NCBI GenBank assembly: GCA_963170185.1
Contig: CAUJGS010000044.1
Span: 1-64,000, forward strand
From: Bdellovibrionota bacterium
GTDB taxonomy: Bacteria; Bdellovibrionota; Bdellovibrionia; Bdellovibrionales; JAMPXM01
DNA: 64,000 nt
Direction: 5' to 3'
How positions within the stretch are numbered: the stretch's first letter is position 1; the number at the start of each line of letters is the position of its first letter. Below are positions 25,603-33,631 of this stretch, piece by piece. Made by a program: the position numbers and the translations under genes. The notes below the pieces were generated by a model that worked only from the letters and a program-made list of their open reading frames with translations, did no database searches and was not told where the DNA came from.

Positions 25603-26229
25603 GTGAGTTGCATTAATCAAAGCGTCTGCAAACTGTGCCGTCGCGAAAACGTAAAGCTCTTCTTGAAGGGCGATCGTTGTTTCACTGATAAATGTTCGTT
25701 TGATCGTCGTCCTTATCCGCCAGGGCAACACGGCCAAAGCCGTTTGAAGTTCTCGGAATTCGCACTTCAGCTTCGCGAGAAGCAGAAGACTAAACGCTAC
25801 TACGGCGTTTACGAAAAGCAGTTCCGCAAGTATTTCCAAGAGGCTGACCGTCGCCGCGGCGTGACAGGTACGGAACTTCTCCGTCTCCTTGAAACTCGTT
25901 TGGACAACGTTGTCTTCACATTGGGGTATGCAACAAGCCGTCGCGAAGCGCGCCAGCTTGTTAAGCACAACCACTTCACGGTCAACGGTCGCAAAAACAA
26001 CATCCCTAGCTTCAACCTTGAAAAAGGTGACGTTGTGGAAGTTCGTGAGGCAAGCCGTGCGATGAACAAGATTCTCGCGGGGATCGAAAGCGCGAAGAAG
26101 CGTGAAATCCCAAGCTGGCTGGAAGCTGACCACGGTGCTTTCAAAGGTACCGTTAAGGATCAGCCGAGCCGTGACAACATCACGTTGGCTGTCGAAGAGA
26201 ACATGATCGTCGAATACTACTCGCGATAA
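25603..26229 (+). CDS. rpsD: 30S ribosomal protein S4 (zinc form)
   Basis: S4 (208 residues) starts 16S assembly and represses the alpha operon in E. coli. The N-terminus CKLCRRENVKLFLKGDRC...DKC has the four cysteines of the zinc-binding C+ form. The S4 RNA-binding domain is LETRLDNVVFTLGYATSRRE and RQLVKHNHFTVNGRKNNIPS. The start is GTG. Confidence 0.96.
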   Translation: MSCINQSVCKLCRRENVKLFLKGDRCFTDKCSFDRRPYPPGQHGQSRLKFSEFALQLREKQKTKRYYGVYEKQFRKYFQEADRRRGVTGTELLRLLETRLDNVVFTLGYATSRREARQLVKHNHFTVNGRKNNIPSFNLEKGDVVEVREASRAMNKILAGIESAKKREIPSWLEADHGAFKGTVKDQPSRDNITLAVEENMIVEYYSR

Positions 26230-26240
26230 GCGGGATTTGC

Positions 26241-26266
26241 GCGCAGCTTCTAATTAGAAGTTGCGC
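26241..26266 (+). other. Near-perfect palindromic hairpin between rpsD and rpoA
   Basis: GCGCAGCTTC-TAATTA-GAAGTTGCGC forms a 10-bp stem with one G-U pair, and the loop TAATTA is itself self-complementary. No T-tract follows, so it looks like an RNA processing or attenuation element that could set RpoA level apart from S4. Confidence 0.55.
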
Positions 26267-26389
26267 AGCTGGTATCGATGTAGCGTAGGGTTATAAACGA
26301 GACGCCGAAACCTGAGAGATCACGAGCGCGAGGAAAATAAGCTCGGCTTGTTTGGATCCCTCAAAGAGGCGATTGTTAGGAGACTAAGG

Positions 26390-27451
26390 GTGCAAGGGCA
26401 TAACCAAGGTTTTAATGGCGGCAGCATGCAAGAGCATTACTACAAGTTCTGGCGCGATCTGATTAAGCCGAAAGGCTATGAAGTTGAGCGTGAGACACTG
26501 ACTGATGAATACGGTAAATTCATCATCCGTCCGCTTGAGCGCGGTTACGGAGTAACTCTTGGCAACTCGCTTCGCCGCATTTTGCTGAGCTCGATGATGG
26601 GTTCGGCAGTTTCTGCTGTGAAATTTGATGGCGTATTGCACGAGTTCTCGACGATGCCAGACGTTCGTGAGGACGTGACTGATATCATTTTGAACTTGAA
26701 GCAGCTTCGTTTCAAACAACATAGCCCAGAGGCGCAAACACTTCGGATCACGAAAGTTGGTCCGGGCGTTGTGACGGCTCGTGATATTCAAGTAAATGAC
26801 AAGATCGAGATTTTGAATCCCGATCAGCACATCGCGACTCTCGGTCCAAACGCGAAGTTCAATGCTGAACTTTTCGTGACATTTGGCCGCGGTTACGTAG
26901 CAGCTGACGAGAACTCGCACCAGCTTCCAGTTGGATTCATTGGTGTTGACGCTCTCTACAGCCCGATCCGCAAAGTGAACTACCACGTTTCGAACGCACG
27001 CGTAGCGCAGCGTACTGACTACGATGCTTTGACTTTCGAAACATGGACAGATGGTTCGCTTAAGCCGGAAGAGGCAGTTGCTTTGGCGTCGAAGATCATG
27101 AAGGAACAGCTTCAGATCTTCCTGACGTTCGACGAAGCGATGGAGCCGACAGAAGAACAAGAAATCAAATCGACACCTGTTCTCAATGAGAACTTGTTCC
27201 GTTCGGTTGATGACTTGGAACTCTCGGTTCGTTCGGCAAACTGCTTGAAGAACGCCAACATCCGTTTCATCGGCGAACTCGTTTCGCGCAGTGAAGCTGA
27301 GATGCTGAAGACAAAAAACTTCGGGCGTAAGTCGTTGAACGAAATTAAAGAGATCCTCTCGGAGATGGGTCTTCACTTGGGTATGAAGGTCGATGGATGG
27401 CCTCCTCAAGGTTGGGATCCAAACACGGCAGTTCCTCGTAAAGATGCGTAA
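26390..27451 (+). CDS. rpoA: RNA polymerase alpha subunit
   Basis: The alpha subunit dimerises to scaffold RNA polymerase. The N-terminal domain shows [20 protein letters not shown] (dimer helix). The C-terminal domain shows [20 protein letters not shown] and the DNA/UP-element-binding [15 protein letters not shown]. Two starts compete. The GTG used here has TAGGAG 7 bases upstream and gives 353 residues; the ATG at 26426 ([17 protein letters not shown]) gives 341 residues, nearer the family length, but has only a weak upstream site. Identity is certain and the first 12 residues are not. Confidence 0.95.
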
Positions 27452-27556
27452 TTGATGGTGTGAGAAGCGAGGCCCGCTGAAAAATCTGAAAGGTCGAATG
27501 ATTGACCAAGAAGATCACGGTGGGCGGGGGCTTCTCCGCGAAAGAAGAGTTAGACA

Positions 27557-28060
27557 ATGAGACACAATGCAAGAGTGAAACATTTTGGTCGCAAGACAGG
27601 CCCACGCAAGGCACTTTTCCGTGGCTTGGTGAACTCGCTTGTTGAAAACGGCCGCATTAAGACGACTTTGGCTAAAGCGAAAGAACTTCGCCGCCACGTC
27701 GAAAAGGCAATCACAGTAGGCAAGAAGAACACCTTGCATGCTCGCCGCCTCCTTCTTTCTCGTTATCCAAACGAGAAGGTCGTAGCGACGATCATGTCGG
27801 ACCTCGCGCCTCGTTTCCAAGATCGCGAAGGTGGTTACACCCGCATTTTGAAACTTGGAATGCGTCCTGGTGATCGTGCTGAGATGGCTTACATCCAGTT
27901 TGTTGATTTCAACGCTACAGAGAAAGCAGCGAAAGAAGTTGATAAAAAGGTTGAGGCGAAAGCGAAGCGCGTTGCTACTAAGGCGACAGCGGCGAAGAAG
28001 AAGCGTGTTCGTAAGCTTCAGCGCACGGCTCGCGCCGTTCAGCGCAAAAACCGCAAGTAA
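27557..28060 (+). CDS. rplQ: 50S ribosomal protein L17 with basic tail
   Basis: L17 (167 residues; usual about 120-130). The core RHNARVKHFGRKTGPRKALF, LVENGRIKTTLAKAKELRRH and GDRAEMAYIQFVDF are typical. A tail of about 45 residues rich in K, R and A (AKRVATKATAAKKKRVRKL) follows. It ends the alpha operon just before a strong terminator. Confidence 0.95.
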   Translation: MRHNARVKHFGRKTGPRKALFRGLVNSLVENGRIKTTLAKAKELRRHVEKAITVGKKNTLHARRLLLSRYPNEKVVATIMSDLAPRFQDREGGYTRILKLGMRPGDRAEMAYIQFVDFNATEKAAKEVDKKVEAKAKRVATKATAAKKKRVRKLQRTARAVQRKNRK

Positions 28061-28138
28061 TTTGCTGCAGGTAGGTTGCGGCACGCGGCTTCGGTACGCG
28101 TTTAATACGCAATTTATCAGACAGACAGGTTGAGCGAA

Positions 28139-28172
28139 GCAAAAGGCTGGTGTCCCCAGCCTTTTTGCTTTT
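28139..28172 (+). terminator. Rho-independent terminator after rplQ
   Basis: A perfect 10-bp stem AAAAGGCTGG/CCAGCCTTTT with loop TGTCC is followed by TGCTTTTTAC. It closes the ribosomal-protein region. Confidence 0.93.
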
Positions 28173-28236
28173 TACTGGCCGAAGTTTGGTTCCGATGATT
28201 TGGGTGGACGCCTGGGTCGTTGTTGAGGGAGCGGGA

Positions 28237-28875
28237 ATGAGTCGGAAGGTTACTTGGGGTCTTGGGTTTGTTGTGTTTTTGGTTGTCCTGGCGGCGGCGT
28301 GGTTTGCGCTACAGAAGAAGTACGACATGGACATCGCACCGGAGACCTACTCATTTGTGGACCGGTTTGAGCGAGACGGCGTACCGGACATCGAAGTGCC
28401 CGCTATTGCGCCTGCCACCGCAAATGGAAAAGCAAACGTAAACGAGAGATCCGCAAAAGATGGTCCGGCGAAAGGCGCGCACCAGTTGGGAGTTTTGCGG
28501 CTGGGAGATATCAAGGAGCCTATTGTGATAGTGAACTTCTGGGCGTCATGGTGCAATCCGTGCGTTGAGGAGTTTCCTTCGATGTTGAAGCTGGTTGAGG
28601 CTCTCGACGGCAAGGTGGCGATCGTCGCTGTGTCCATGGATGACGAGCTGAATGATCTCACAGCGTTCTCGAAGCTCTTTGGCGTTCCACGCAAAGGGTT
28701 TTATGTCGGGTGGGATGAGAAGAAGAAGGTCATGGAAGATTACGGAGTCGGAAAGCTGCCGGAGAGCTACATCGTTGGCCGCGATCGCAAACTGATCCGA
28801 AAAGTTTTGGGAATCGAGAACTGGGCTTCAGAAAATGCCATCGCCTACTTCAAAGAACTCGCGCAAAGCGAGTAG
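28237..28875 (+). CDS. TlpA/ResA-like membrane-anchored thioredoxin
   Basis: This is a 212-residue protein with one N-terminal membrane anchor (about residues 6-24) and a periplasmic thioredoxin fold. The active site is FWASWCNPC (C106, C109), which suggests a disulfide reductase of the TlpA/ResA/DsbE type, for example in cytochrome c maturation. A cis-proline region is in GVGKLPESYIVGRDRK. A longer frame reaches into the terminator and is rejected; the ATG follows GGGAGCGGG. No cytochrome biogenesis genes are adjacent, so the substrate is open. Confidence 0.85.
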   Translation: MSRKVTWGLGFVVFLVVLAAAWFALQKKYDMDIAPETYSFVDRFERDGVPDIEVPAIAPATANGKANVNERSAKDGPAKGAHQLGVLRLGDIKEPIVIVNFWASWCNPCVEEFPSMLKLVEALDGKVAIVAVSMDDELNDLTAFSKLFGVPRKGFYVGWDEKKKVMEDYGVGKLPESYIVGRDRKLIRKVLGIENWASENAIAYFKELAQSE

Positions 28876-28933: not shown

Positions 28934-29590
28934 GTGATCGATCTTTATTCTTTGGCCACACCGAATGGACAGAAGGTTTCTATCGCTTTGGAAGAGATGG
29001 GGCTTTCGTACACACCACATACGATTGATATCATGAAGGGCGATCAGTTTAAGCCCGAGTTTGTGTCGGTGAATCCGAACTCGAAGATTCCTGCGATCGT
29101 GGATCAAGATGGGCCTGGTGGAAAACCGTTCGCGGTGTTTGAGTCGGGTGCGATTCTTGTTTATCTCGCGAAAAAATCTGGAAAGTTTTTGTCGAAAGAC
29201 CCTCGTCTTGAGAGTGAGACGTTGCAGTGGCTTTTCTTTCAAGTCGGTGGTGTTGGGCCGATGTTTGGTCAGTTCGGCCATTTCTATAAATACGCTGGAG
29301 CCAAGTGTGAGCATCCGTATCCGGTCGAGCGCTATGCGAACGAGAGCAAGCGGCTATTGAAAGTGCTTGATACAAGACTGGCTGGGGAGCGCGGTGGTCG
29401 AGACTTTTTGGTTGGCGACGAGTACTCGATTGCGGACATGGCGATGATGCCTTGGGTGCATTGCCTTAAGGTGTTTTATGGCGCCAAGGATGTCTTGGGA
29501 TTAGAGGGCTTTGCGAATGTCGAGAAGTGGGTGGCGCGCTGTCTTGCGCGACCGCAGACCGCGGCGGGCATGAAGGTCTGCGATTTCTAG
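28934..29590 (+). CDS. Glutathione S-transferase family protein (YghU/YfcG-like)
   Basis: This 218-residue protein has the thioredoxin-like N-domain LYSLATPNGQKVSIALEEMG, the cis-Pro NPNSKIPAIVD, FESGAILVYLA, and the all-helical C-domain with DEYSIADMAMMPWV. The TPNGQKV pattern is typical of the YghU/YfcG (Nu-class) group, which act as disulfide reductases with glutathione. The GTG start has a perfect AGGAGG. It follows the TlpA-like gene by 58 bases and may be co-transcribed. Confidence 0.88.
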   Translation: MIDLYSLATPNGQKVSIALEEMGLSYTPHTIDIMKGDQFKPEFVSVNPNSKIPAIVDQDGPGGKPFAVFESGAILVYLAKKSGKFLSKDPRLESETLQWLFFQVGGVGPMFGQFGHFYKYAGAKCEHPYPVERYANESKRLLKVLDTRLAGERGGRDFLVGDEYSIADMAMMPWVHCLKVFYGAKDVLGLEGFANVEKWVARCLARPQTAAGMKVCDF

Positions 29591-29627: not shown

Positions 29628-29669
29628 GGTGCTGGGGGACTGCCAGCACCCATTTGGATTTTCTTTTTT
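29628..29669 (+). terminator. Rho-independent terminator after the GST gene
   Basis: An 8-bp stem GGTGCTGG/CCAGCACC with a 7-base loop is followed, after a short spacer, by TTTTCTTTTTTT. It lies between the converging GST and MscS genes. Confidence 0.75.
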
Positions 29670-30925
29670 TAAGGAGCGTTTGGCCGGAATGGGAGCGCTT
29701 GCTCGGGGATGGTCGAGGGTGAGCCATCTCGCACGGCCATGTAGTTTGGCGACATGATTTCGATGTCGTGCTTTTTGAAGCTCGCTTGGATTGCCGTGTG
29801 AATATCGGAGTAAGACTGCGCCATGGAGTTCGCGTCTTCTGTGTAGGCATTGATCTCGTAAGCGACGGCGAAGTCATTGAGTGCCGTTTGAAATACGAAG
29901 GGTTTAGGCTCTTGAAGAACTTTGGGACAGGCAAGCGCGGCTTCGACGAGAGCCTGGTGAACTTGCGGCCACGGTACGTCGTAGCCGATCGTGACGGTGG
30001 TGTTGAGAATGAGGCCCTTCTGTTTTGAGACCGCGCTGTAGTTGATGATGTGCGTATTCAAAATCAGCGAGTTCGGAATCGTGACGTCGACGTTTTTGAT
30101 GGTGCGAATTCGGGTGACGAGAAGTGATTTCTCCATGATGTCGCCGATGGTGTCGCCGATTCGGACTCGGTCACCGGGCTTGAAGGGGCGCATGTAGGTC
30201 ATGACGATTCCGGCTATCATGTTGGAGATGGCCGAGGACGACCCGAACGAGACCAAGACGCCAAGGAAGACGGACACGCCTTGAAAGGCCGGTGAGCTGG
30301 AGCCCGGAATGTATGGGAAACACATCACGGCCGCTAGCAAGATGACAAAGATGCGAACGATTTGAAAGCTTGGACGGGCCCAATCTTGGTGGAAGCCATC
30401 GAATTGGATGCGGCCGGACTCCACCGCCAAGAAGAGCGCGTTGAGAACCTTTAAGAGATAGCGCGTGAAGACGATGATGACGGCGATGAAAAACAAGTTC
30501 GGGATGAGGGTCGTGAGCCCATTCCAAATCCACAGAACTGGTTCGGCGACCATTTCGAAGATGCGATCGGCCCAACCTTGAGTCCAGTGGAAGAAGCTTA
30601 GGACAATCGGGATATAGAAATAAGTCAGGACGAGAGTGAAGCCGATCCACGTGGTTTCGATGAGAACATCGACGATCGTGCCGATGGCGTGACGGTCGAG
30701 AATTCGGGATTGGAACAGAACTCGAAACGGCCCTTTTTCGAAGATGTGAGAAACAGAGAGCCAGTTGGCGAGTTTCACTTTCAGGTTTGTGGTTGCGCCA
30801 CGGCCGAGTCGAAGCAGGCCAATGTACAAAAGTGTGACGACAATGGCGGCGAGGGCACCGGCAAGCAGGGTTTGGTTGGTGTTGAGGGTGAGGTTGAACT
30901 TGGTTCCGAGTTCAGCAAAATCCAT
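29669..30925 (-). CDS. MscS-family mechanosensitive channel
   Basis: This is a 418-residue small-conductance mechanosensitive channel. About four or five N-terminal membrane spans come first. Then come the pore helix region GVSVFLGVLVSFGSSSAISN and the beta domain RPFKPGDRVRIGDTIGDIME, and last a cytosolic C-domain (VTIPNSLILNTHIINYS). By family it opens under membrane tension to release solutes. The start has GGAGG 6 bases upstream. It is the third gene of a leftward operon, 62 bases after the TIGR03545-type gene, so it may serve an envelope complex as well as osmotic protection. Confidence 0.92.
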   Translation of the reverse strand: MDFAELGTKFNLTLNTNQTLLAGALAAIVVTLLYIGLLRLGRGATTNLKVKLANWLSVSHIFEKGPFRVLFQSRILDRHAIGTIVDVLIETTWIGFTLVLTYFYIPIVLSFFHWTQGWADRIFEMVAEPVLWIWNGLTTLIPNLFFIAVIIVFTRYLLKVLNALFLAVESGRIQFDGFHQDWARPSFQIVRIFVILLAAVMCFPYIPGSSSPAFQGVSVFLGVLVSFGSSSAISNMIAGIVMTYMRPFKPGDRVRIGDTIGDIMEKSLLVTRIRTIKNVDVTIPNSLILNTHIINYSAVSKQKGLILNTTVTIGYDVPWPQVHQALVEAALACPKVLQEPKPFVFQTALNDFAVAYEINAYTEDANSMAQSYSDIHTAIQASFKKHDIEIMSPNYMAVRDGSPSTIPEQALPFRPNAP

Positions 30926-30987
30926 GGGGTCCTCCGGGAGCGAGAGTTCGGCCGACTGTGAAGCCGGCTTGTGAAGTCAGCTTCGGG

Positions 30988-32895
30988 TTAGAAGCCGAGG
31001 CGTTTTTTGAGTTCGTCGGCGGCTTTTTGAGCTTCGTTTTGAAGTTTGCCTTTTTGTTCGTTGATCGCTTTGTTCTTTTGCTTTTCGAGCTCACCTTTGA
31101 GGCCGTTGATCGCGGACTCTTTTCCTTGCAGAACCTTGGTGATATCGCCTTGGCTCGAAGAGAACTCGCCCAGCAGTTTGTTCTTTTCGGAGCCGATGGT
31201 GTCGTCGATCATTTTTTGGAGCTTACCTTTGGCTTCGTTGATCTTGGCTTGAAGCTGTTTTTCAAAACCTTTTTGTAGCTCGGAGCCCAGATTGGAGTCG
31301 AAACCAAATGAGAGGTTTGTCCAAGAGCCCTTGATCTCCGCGTTGAGCGTGACCTTGGTGAGATCGTTCATCACGTTCTTTAAGATCTCGTCGACGACCG
31401 CATTTTTTGCATTGGCCTCGTGGGTGATCTTCGTGAAGACCGACTCGAGGTTCATTTTAAGCTCTTGGTTGCGAAGAACGGCCATGAGCTTAGATGAGCC
31501 AGTGGCCTGTTTGAAACCGATGTTGACTTCATCGCTTTGCAAAAGTTTTTGCTCGGTGATTGGGAAGCTTGCGACCGTTAACTCAAGCGACTCGACCGGC
31601 TCTTCGGTGCGGTGATCGATGGTGATGAGGCCTTTAACACCTTCGATTTGTGAATGCGGGAAACGGCCCGTGAACGAAAGCGTCGTGGGCAGTCCCAACA
31701 TTGGCGGATCGTCGGTGAGGTTTTTGAGTTCGCCAGTGAGGTCTCCCGATGGTCCGTCGGGAGATTCTTTCGATGAGATCGCGGCTTTTTTTAGCCAGAA
31801 CATCGGATAGGCTTTTTGTTTTCCGAATTTGTAGGTGCGACCTTCCGAGCGTTCGCGAGCTGTGGGCTTGGCGAATTCCGCTTTCTGTTCGGCCGTCTTC
31901 TTGGGCGGCATGTATTGGCGTGCTTTGTTGGCGTAGGTTTCAAACTGCCGCACGCGCGCGAGGATCATGGGACCAAAGATGCTTTTGGCGATGGAAGCCG
32001 CGTCGAGAGAGGGAATTTTGAAGCGGTTTTGCAGATCCTTGATGTCGTTGTCGACGAAGGACTTGAGTTCATCCATGCTTTTCTTAAGAGAGCTCATTTC
32101 GGTGCTGACAGCTTGGCTGGTGCTTTGTACCTCTTTTACTTTGCCGTCGACGTCTTTTACGAGCGCATCGATCTGCTGGAAGGATTGCGTGACTTCCATC
32201 GGATTCGAAAAGCCGCTTGTCTTGATGGATTTCGCTCGTGTTTCAAAGCCCTTGATGTCTTCGTTTTTCGGCAAGCGTGCTATGCGTGCTTCCCATTCGG
32301 TTTTCTTCTTTTGGAGTTCTTGTTCGAGTTCTTTGATACGTTTCGAGCTTTTGAGTTCGCCTTCGATGTTTTTGAGCTGGCTAGCCGGGTCGGCACCCTG
32401 CAGAAGAGAGGCGGCATCGCCGAGCACATTGTGTTGGAATTGTTTCTCCATGCTGGCAAGGGCCTCAGCTTTTAGCTGCTCGGACTTTGATTCTGATGGC
32501 GGAGTCGGCGGCAGCACGCGCCCTGGGCGTTTGCGTTCGGTACCCAGGCGGATGTCGAGAATGCTGGCGTCTTCGACGGCGACTTTGCCGCGCAAAAGAG
32601 CGTCCCAGAGCATTTCGAATCGGATGAGTCCGAGTTCGATAAGGTTTTTTGCCGGTGCTTCGGCGTTCGTGACTTGAATGCCACGGATTTCAAGCGAGGC
32701 GCCGAGGAAGTCGGTTTTCACACTAGCGACGTTGACTTCTGCGCCGTGAGCAAGTGTCCCGCCGTACTCAAGCGCTCGGCGCACGTGTGAATCGAAGAAG
32801 AAAAAGAAGTACGCCCAGATAAGACCAATGATGATCGAAATCGGGAGAATGGCTTCAAAGCGAATCGGCCCTTTGGCTTTTTTTGGTTTGCTCAT
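30988..32895 (-). CDS. TIGR03545-type AsmA-like envelope protein
   Basis: This 635-residue protein has one N-terminal membrane anchor (ILPISIIIGLIWAYFFFFF, about residues 16-35). An AsmA-like beta region then contains LGASLEIRGIQVTN and AVEDASILDIRLGTERKRPG. A long alpha-helical or coiled-coil section covers about residues 140-310, and the charged C-terminus is rich in K, E, Q and A (GELEKQKNKAINEQKGKLQN). I recognise the pattern of the TIGR03545 family, whose function is not established. It pairs, as usual, with a TIGR03546-type gene just upstream (18 bases). A role in inter-membrane lipid or envelope transport is an inference from AsmA resemblance only. Confidence 0.75.
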   Translation of the reverse strand: MSKPKKAKGPIRFEAILPISIIIGLIWAYFFFFFDSHVRRALEYGGTLAHGAEVNVASVKTDFLGASLEIRGIQVTNAEAPAKNLIELGLIRFEMLWDALLRGKVAVEDASILDIRLGTERKRPGRVLPPTPPSESKSEQLKAEALASMEKQFQHNVLGDAASLLQGADPASQLKNIEGELKSSKRIKELEQELQKKKTEWEARIARLPKNEDIKGFETRAKSIKTSGFSNPMEVTQSFQQIDALVKDVDGKVKEVQSTSQAVSTEMSSLKKSMDELKSFVDNDIKDLQNRFKIPSLDAASIAKSIFGPMILARVRQFETYANKARQYMPPKKTAEQKAEFAKPTARERSEGRTYKFGKQKAYPMFWLKKAAISSKESPDGPSGDLTGELKNLTDDPPMLGLPTTLSFTGRFPHSQIEGVKGLITIDHRTEEPVESLELTVASFPITEQKLLQSDEVNIGFKQATGSSKLMAVLRNQELKMNLESVFTKITHEANAKNAVVDEILKNVMNDLTKVTLNAEIKGSWTNLSFGFDSNLGSELQKGFEKQLQAKINEAKGKLQKMIDDTIGSEKNKLLGEFSSSQGDITKVLQGKESAINGLKGELEKQKNKAINEQKGKLQNEAQKAADELKKRLGF

Positions 32896-32913
32896 GTTGT
32901 TGTTCTCCAGATG

Positions 32914-33441
32914 TTAGGCGCCGTAAAGTTCGTCGTATTTTGCGTAGAATTTGTAGAGGGTCGTTGTCTGCATAGCTTTAAAGAGTTTTGTCTCTTTGAA
33001 GCGTGCGACCACAGTTGCGCGGTATTTTTCAACCATGATGCGTGAGACGAAGAAGACGACCGGGAAGAGCGCGATGCTCATCACGGCCGATCCCATGACG
33101 ATGGAGTTGTTGAAGCGAGTGAATGGCACGATCGGCATGTTGTACATCTCGGTGAAGAGCCCTTGAAGAGCTGGCATTTCGAGGACGACTGTGCCGATGG
33201 CGTGAGCGACGGGATCAAGTGCCCAAGCGATCAACGAAAAGAAGAATGCGAAGACGGTGGCCGCGCCGATCTGAATACGGAAGAAGAGTAGCAACAAAAT
33301 CACCAGCAGGGTTTGGAGCGAGAATGCCGGAGCAAAACCGAGAATCAAACCGCAGGCGATACCGCTTGCGATTTGATTGGTCCCCGTGTCGCTGTTGAGA
33401 AGTTTTAGGAAAGCGAAGATCTGCTTGAGGATGAATGTCAT
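32914..33441 (-). CDS. TIGR03546-type (DUF2062-like) membrane protein
   Basis: This is a 175-residue membrane protein with about three spans. The pattern IASGIACGLILGFAPAFSLQ and ALDPVAHAIGTVVLE resembles the TIGR03546 / DUF2062 group. It is first in the operon with the TIGR03545-type gene and an MscS channel. An ORF extending 57 codons upstream was rejected: it is low-complexity P/S/R-rich sequence, and AGAGG stands just before this ATG. Function unknown. Confidence 0.75.
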   Translation of the reverse strand: MTFILKQIFAFLKLLNSDTGTNQIASGIACGLILGFAPAFSLQTLLVILLLLFFRIQIGAATVFAFFFSLIAWALDPVAHAIGTVVLEMPALQGLFTEMYNMPIVPFTRFNNSIVMGSAVMSIALFPVVFFVSRIMVEKYRATVVARFKETKLFKAMQTTTLYKFYAKYDELYGA

Positions 33442-33601: not shown

Positions 33602-33631
33602 TTTGACTGCATGTCAAAGAGGCGGCATGAT
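33602..33631 (+). promoter_or_regulatory. Putative promoter and operator of the aminotransferase gene
   Basis: TTGACT (5 of 6) is followed after 17 bases by CATGAT (4 of 6), 48 bases before the ATG. The -35 lies inside a 6-bp inverted repeat TTTGAC-TGCAT-GTCAAA (33602-33618), which could be a repressor site. The 120 bases upstream of it are very G-rich. Confidence 0.5.

What the first reader, a model, noticed from the sequence alone, without database searches (positions are those of the whole stretch)
29669..33441. Three-gene membrane operon: TIGR03546, TIGR03545 and an MscS channel
The TIGR03545/TIGR03546 pair is a known but uncharacterised partnership. Here it is tightly joined to an MscS channel. 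An AsmA-like bridge with a long coiled-coil, a small membrane protein and a tension sensor could form an envelope lipid-transport or tension-response system.
Basis: partly seen in the sequence, partly recalled or inferred. Interest (0 to 1): 0.5.

Follow-up and report, generated by a model that had tools for sequence, protein, structure and literature searches.

The report
Envelope gene pair plus stray MscS
Two genes that nearly always travel together, perhaps for a membrane-anchored lipid carrier between the two bacterial membranes and its partner, have in this one genome apparently gained an unrelated pressure-channel gene behind them.

Summary
The three-part system is not supported. Of 177 other distinct proteins with a TIGR03545 match, from Bdellovibrionota and two further groups (Gammaproteobacteria, spirochaetes), none has an intact MscS gene behind it (163 had at least 1 kb of DNA there). 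TIGR03546 adjoins or is fused to TIGR03545 in 169 of 171 testable cases, with four natural fusion proteins. The sister genome G228 carries a decayed MscS remnant in the same slot; the other three genomes of the genus have none there. Eleven other genomes of the order hold this MscS subfamily, all away from the pair. So the channel is a lineage-specific neighbour, dispensable to the pair. The 'AsmA-like' part holds up: about 110 N-terminal residues of TIGR03545 are related to AsmA/DUF748 (hhalign E 5e-10), and the model shows a membrane anchor, beta-rich domains and long helices. I read the pair as a two-part AsmA-type envelope lipid carrier (inferred, about 50%). The MscS link is ordinary.

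The parts
32914..33441 (-). TIGR03546 gene (DUF2062 membrane protein, 175 aa): small inner-membrane partner
   Evidence: NCBIfam TIGR03546 159.3 bits over cut-off 79.45; Pfam DUF2062 42.7 bits over 27.4; start taken at 33441 from the AGAGGA site and the alignment of 34 proteins; the longer mechanical frame starts at 33612
30988..32895 (-). TIGR03545 gene (635 aa): membrane-anchored AsmA/Chorein-N-like N-terminus, helical hairpin, beta domain, long C-terminal helix
   Evidence: NCBIfam 419.5 bits over 173.35; model mean pLDDT 83.1; hhalign to AsmA/DUF748-type proteins, probability 96.6, E 5.1e-10, window residues 11-119
29669..30925 (-). MscS-type mechanosensitive channel gene (418 aa); neighbour in this genome only, not part of the conserved module
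   Evidence: Pfam MS_channel_1st, 2nd and 3rd over cut-offs; no intact co-directional MscS within 1 kb behind any of 177 other distinct proteins with a TIGR03545 match

Best explanation
The functional unit is the two-gene pair TIGR03546-TIGR03545; the MscS gene behind it is a lineage-specific neighbour that may share the transcript but is not part of the machine. [quoted passage not shown] TIGR03546 is a small polytopic inner-membrane protein that works beside that anchor. The most likely role is to take lipid from the inner membrane at TIGR03546 and pass it along the beta groove of TIGR03545 towards the outer membrane, with the helical rod as spacer or tether. Shown: gene pair, natural fusions, N-terminal AsmA relationship, predicted architecture, non-conservation of MscS. 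Inferred: periplasmic location, lipid cargo, direction, contact of the two proteins, groove, rod as spacer. My confidence is about 0.95 that MscS is not a conserved part and about 0.5 for the lipid-carrier role; the single figure below is for the whole.
For: Pair: TIGR03546 directly before TIGR03545 in 76 of 76 Bdellovibrionota loci; in 44 of 44 further distinct proteins of a set found through TIGR03546; and in 48 of 50 TIGR03545 proteins of the two other groups (43 adjacent and 4 fused by script, plus L294 read by eye). With the window 169 of 171. Fusions: L252 passes both NCBIfam cut-offs in one 776-aa frame (188.8 and 88.5 bits); L254, L255 and L256 pass the TIGR03546 cut-off and carry a TIGR03545 N-terminus below its cut-off (74-85 bits). 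A paper reports plausible fusions in Nautilia and Francisella (PMC4035852, passages). Model. MscS side: decayed remnant in the sister genome, none in the slot of G232, G291 and G292, and 11 of 11 other genomes of the order with this MscS subfamily keep it elsewhere. The MscS profile recognised 18 of 18 loci with distant MscS relatives in the order, one of which (L320) was in its training set. Precedent: Levine argues that the AsmA/TamB N-terminus is a Chorein-N lipid-transfer domain (PMC6791001, passages); YhdP, TamB and YdbH are jointly essential and needed for outer-membrane lipid homeostasis in E. coli (PMC8593681, abstract).
Against: The window TIGR03545 protein reaches no Pfam AsmA-clan family at E 0.1; the relationship covers about 110 N-terminal residues, and the proteins used to show it were themselves found as weak TIGR03545 hits. 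Other weak hits fall on the coiled-coil parts and say nothing about AsmA. Foldseek finds no solved structure at E 0.001 for either model; VIA-align rows are mostly helical bundles and beta barrels. The fused-protein model has pTM 0.43 and a low-confidence linker, so no TIGR03546-TIGR03545 contact can be claimed. L244 and L251 have no TIGR03546 nearby. Groove lining was not measured and nothing here tests lipid binding.
Confidence: 0.6

Rival explanations
1. A real three-part lipid-transport/tension-response system: the MscS channel senses tension and gates or reports to the TIGR03545/TIGR03546 bridge.
For: The three genes are co-directional, tightly spaced and without a terminator-like site between them on that strand; the slot was probably already occupied in the ancestor shared with G228.
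Against: None of 177 other distinct proteins with a TIGR03545 match has an intact MscS behind it; the sister lineage let the gene decay; 11 of 11 other genomes of the order with this MscS subfamily keep it away from the pair.
Confidence: 0.04
2. The pair is a structural tether or periplasm-spacing device (helical rod) rather than a lipid carrier.
For: 98-residue C-terminal helix plus a helical hairpin; hairpin and C-terminal lengths co-vary over 162 proteins (Spearman 0.48), also within Bdellovibrionota (0.45, 117 proteins), more than the other region pairs tested (0.16-0.28).
Against: Not significant in the 17 proteins (0.36, p 0.15) and absent in the 27 (-0.21, p 0.29); relatedness was not corrected for and some contig-truncated proteins were included. 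The AsmA-type segment and beta domain point to lipid handling.
Confidence: 0.25
3. The pair assists outer-membrane or surface protein assembly or secretion (TamB- or GspN-like) rather than lipid transport.
For: AsmA relatives include TamB (PMC6791001, passages); the fused protein L252 has a sub-threshold match to GspN_Lepto (17.6 bits, cut-off 50, E 0.0021).
Against: No TamB-domain match in the window protein; the genome has a TamB-type 1378-aa frame elsewhere; the GspN match is far below cut-off and was not seen in the window protein.
Confidence: 0.12

Closest known systems
TIGR03545 / TIGR03546 NCBIfam families (uncharacterised pair)
   Same: The window proteins are plain members over the curated cut-offs, in the usual order and close spacing
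   Different: Only the extra MscS gene behind them
AsmA-like clan: AsmA, DUF748, YhdP, TamB
   Same: N-terminal membrane anchor plus beta segment, about 110 residues related in sequence; long beta strands behind it
   Different: No Pfam AsmA-clan match in the window protein; large helical hairpin and 98-residue C-terminal helix; a TIGR03546/DUF2062 partner, sometimes fused
MscS/MscK mechanosensitive channels
   Same: MS_channel TM2/3, beta and C-terminal domains present over cut-offs; best solved relative MscK 7uw5, E 2.7e-19
   Different: Below the NCBIfam cut-offs of MscK, MscM and the MscS models; lacks the N-terminal region of about 160 residues of the relatives in G232 and G292, as do the roughly 400-aa members in five genomes of genus g11

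Membership tests
TIGR03545 | NCBIfam score over cut-off 173.35 | tested here: met
   419.5 bits over residues 10-574
TIGR03546 | NCBIfam score over cut-off 79.45 | tested here: met
   159.3 bits; gene directly before TIGR03545, 18-nt gap
MscS-type channel | Pfam MS_channel beta, C-terminal and TM2/3 domains over cut-offs | tested here: met
   68.5, 45.4 and 26.4 bits against 20.2, 21 and 23.1
MscK, MscM and MscS NCBIfam models | NCBIfam curated score | tested here: not met
   MscK 75.3 against 991, MscM 67.6 against 809, MscS models 61.7 against 400, 52.5 against 321 and 26.2 against 500
AsmA-like clan | Pfam AsmA, DUF748, YhdP or TamB match in the window protein | tested here: not met
   No such match up to E 0.1
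AsmA-like clan | Sequence relationship of the N-terminal anchor and Chorein-N-like segment | tested here: met
   hhalign probability 96.6, E 5.1e-10, against 6 proteins found as weak TIGR03545 hits; 4 of the 6 typed, 2 over an AsmA or DUF748 cut-off and 2 just under that of DUF748
AsmA-like clan | Periplasmic hydrophobic beta groove | tested here: inconclusive
   Nine strands at residues 366-534 in the model; groove lining not measured; no solved-structure match at E 0.001
AsmA-like clan | Role in inner-to-outer-membrane lipid transport | not testable with these tools
   Needs genetics and lipid assays
Three-part MscS/TIGR03545/TIGR03546 system | MscS conserved beside the pair | tested here: not met
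   1 of 178 distinct proteins with a TIGR03545 match, the window itself
Three-part MscS/TIGR03545/TIGR03546 system | Predicted or measured contact of MscS with the pair | not tested
   No complex prediction with MscS was run

The most novel reading that the evidence does not exclude
TIGR03545/TIGR03546 is an unrecognised AsmA-type inter-membrane lipid carrier with a dedicated inner-membrane partner (DUF2062) that feeds it, present in over half of the sampled genomes of this phylum (163 of 290 over the cut-off) and in parts of two other groups (18 of 369 and 41 of 247); in this genome it would act beside TamB, no Pfam-AsmA match being found there.
Probability: 0.4. Interest if true: 0.55.

Novelty: new member of a known kind. 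Interest (0 to 1): 0.25.

Why it matters
It removes the MscS link, which would otherwise send an experiment the wrong way, and gives the pair a testable identity: a membrane-anchored AsmA relative with a fixed, sometimes fused, membrane partner. How phospholipids reach the outer membrane is an active question, and inner-membrane partners that feed AsmA-type proteins would be of interest.

Tried and rejected
Three-part tension-response system: rejected on the neighbourhood survey, the remnant in G228 and the unlinked relatives. A conserved MscS upstream: another, short MscS lies 2.6-3.0 kb upstream on the opposite strand in L040 (the same locus as L212), L177, L179 and L192; it points away and I did not take it as a partner.

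Origin of the window MscS: the tree of 12 subfamily members and 4 outgroup proteins has five deep supports of only 37-60, so I cannot say whether the gene moved within the genus or came from outside.

Solved-structure searches: Foldseek gave no match at E 0.001 for the TIGR03545 model or the fused-protein model. VIA-align rows (best Z 11.9 to a designed three-helix bundle; LPD-3 complex Z 5.7, rmsd 9.8, 211 aligned) lie in the range that its own note calls common arrangements. The profile search of PDB sequences gave helical look-alikes, best apolipoprotein A-IV at E 5.9e-05. Contact of TIGR03546 with TIGR03545 by folding a natural fusion: domains good, mutual placement not (pTM 0.43). The length test of the helical rod is suggestive only.

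Limits of the MscS count: the MscS profile was made from 21 relatives in the window's family and the two longer loci; it found 18 of 18 distant relatives in the order, but no control from the other groups was run. Loci hold about 1.5 kb either side of the match. At least 1 kb lay behind TIGR03545 in 73 of 76, 38 of 44, 50 of 55 and 2 of 2 distinct proteins, 163 of 177. The 177 include 5 weak hits without TIGR03546 (L257, L258, L259, L261, L263), and G291 twice, as two pieces of one gene (L149 and L145). The first set is 76 of the 162 other genomes over the cut-off, chosen mostly one per genus. The second set was found through TIGR03546, so there the test runs the other way: TIGR03545 follows in 79 of 80 loci, and the 80th (L158) ends 144 nt behind TIGR03546.

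Rows dropped: 35 exact duplicates and 1 locus without TIGR03545 in the second set, 2 duplicates and 3 loci without a match at that threshold in the third. For the pair count I left out the 5 weak hits and the two contigs that begin inside TIGR03545 (L144, L145), and counted L294 as paired although the script missed it: its TIGR03545 frame is interrupted by a stop and TIGR03546 lies before the first piece.

Naming: 'spirochaete' and 'Gammaproteobacteria' for the groups rest on the record titles of L188 and L174, and 'Bdellovibrionota' on the titles; the genome tool tells no names.
Full report
What is there. On the minus strand lie TIGR03546 (33441-32914), TIGR03545 (32895-30988) and an MscS-type channel (30925-29669). 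Gaps are 18 and 62 nt, each gene has a plausible ribosome site, and no terminator-like site was found on that strand.

Is MscS part of the unit? TIGR03545 is over its cut-off in 163 of 290 sampled genomes of the phylum. I fetched the surroundings of 76 of the other 162, mostly one per genus: TIGR03546 precedes TIGR03545 on the same strand in 76 of 76, and an MscS gene follows in none. A scan of named genomes with TIGR03546 gave 80 loci, 44 of them with further distinct TIGR03545 proteins: the pair in 44 of 44, MscS behind in none. Sixty loci from two more groups gave 55 distinct proteins, none with MscS behind. With the two contigs of G291 and G292 that hold the end of TIGR03545, this makes 177 proteins without, against the window with; 163 of the 177 had at least 1 kb of DNA behind the gene. 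As a control the MscS profile recognised 18 of 18 loci with distant MscS relatives in the order, one of them (L320) in its training set.

Close relatives. The genus has five held genomes. G228, the sister of the window genome on a four-protein tree (support 87), holds a broken C-terminal MscS remnant between TIGR03545 and the TlpA-like gene. In G232, G291 and G292 TIGR03545 is followed directly by the convergent TlpA-like gene, without an MscS match between. G232 and G292 keep longer MscS relatives (583 and 570 aa by first start codon) elsewhere, with an N-terminal region of about 160 residues that the window copy lacks. In the order, 11 other genomes of 140 hold this MscS subfamily at over 350 bits, each at a different place from its TIGR03545 (positions; nearest 68 kb, in G264). 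The simplest history is arrival of MscS behind the pair in the ancestor of G000 and G228, then decay in G228. A glutathione-S-transferase-type gene also lies in this slot in the window and has no match in the slots of the relatives compared.

What the pair is. Adjacency or fusion with TIGR03546 holds in 169 of 171 testable cases, within 30 nt in 52 of 76, 36 of 44 and 36 of 43 of the adjacent ones. Four fused single proteins were met; plausible fusions in Nautilia and Francisella are in print (PMC4035852, passages). That paper calls both families functionally uncharacterised and was the only one found for either family name.

TIGR03545 model (mean pLDDT 83.1): helix 13-50, strands 58-117, helices 137-340, nine strands 366-534, helix 535-632 (98 residues, about 15 nm at the textbook 1.5 A per residue). 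Window residues 11-119 match AsmA/DUF748-type proteins by profile (probability 96.6, E 5.1e-10). Those proteins were first found as weak TIGR03545 hits, so the comparison confirms and is not independent; of 4 typed, L262 is a clear AsmA protein (275 bits), L257 is over the DUF748 cut-off, and L258 and L263 are just under it. Levine argues that this segment in AsmA and TamB is a Chorein-N lipid-transfer domain (PMC6791001, passages). YhdP, TamB and YdbH are jointly essential and needed for outer-membrane lipid homeostasis in E. coli (PMC8593681, abstract). The window genome has one TamB-type frame and no Pfam AsmA match.

How it most likely works. TIGR03546 (helical, mostly well-predicted as a domain of the fusion) would sit beside the TIGR03545 anchor; lipid would pass from the inner membrane into the AsmA-type segment and beta domain; the helices would form a rod that spans or spaces the periplasm. 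Shown: pairing, fusion, N-terminal relationship, predicted architecture. Inferred: contact, cargo, direction, groove, spacing. Length co-variation of hairpin and C-terminal helix (Spearman 0.48 over 162 proteins; absent in the group) is weak support for a bundled rod.

Verdict. The three-gene cluster is real but ordinary: a conserved, uncharacterised pair with a lineage-specific MscS neighbour. The interest lies in the pair as a likely AsmA-type system. Paper searches for MscS with AsmA and operon (2 papers), MscS in Bdellovibrio (5 papers), DUF2062 (4 papers) and the fused genes (1 paper) listed no title that describes this arrangement; apart from PMC4035852 I did not read those papers.

Noticed in passing
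L032 4742-4486 (-), genome G228: Decayed C-terminal remnant of an MscS gene in the same slot as the window's intact MscS.
   Followed up: yes
window 28934-29590 (+): Glutathione-S-transferase-type gene in the slot between MscS and the TlpA-like gene; no match to it in the loci of relatives compared.
   Followed up: partly
L040 (= L212), L177, L179, L192: Another, short MscS lies 2.6-3.0 kb upstream of the pair on the opposite strand.
   Followed up: no
window 25603-28875 (+): The pair converges on the end of a ribosomal operon (rpsD-rpoA-rplQ) with a TlpA-like gene between; TlpA-like, rpoA and rplQ genes occur in 24, 21 and 19 of 77 loci.
   Followed up: no
L147 4789-7005 (+): 738-aa frame that looks like a DedA/TVP38-type membrane domain fused to a lipoamide-dehydrogenase-type flavoenzyme (recognised by eye, no family search).
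   Followed up: no
   Followed up: no
L265-L293: Many TIGR03545 proteins of this group have a longer N-terminal part (median 196 against 130 residues before the conserved Arg).
   Followed up: no
L244, L251: TIGR03545 proteins without TIGR03546 in about 1.3 kb either side.
   Followed up: no
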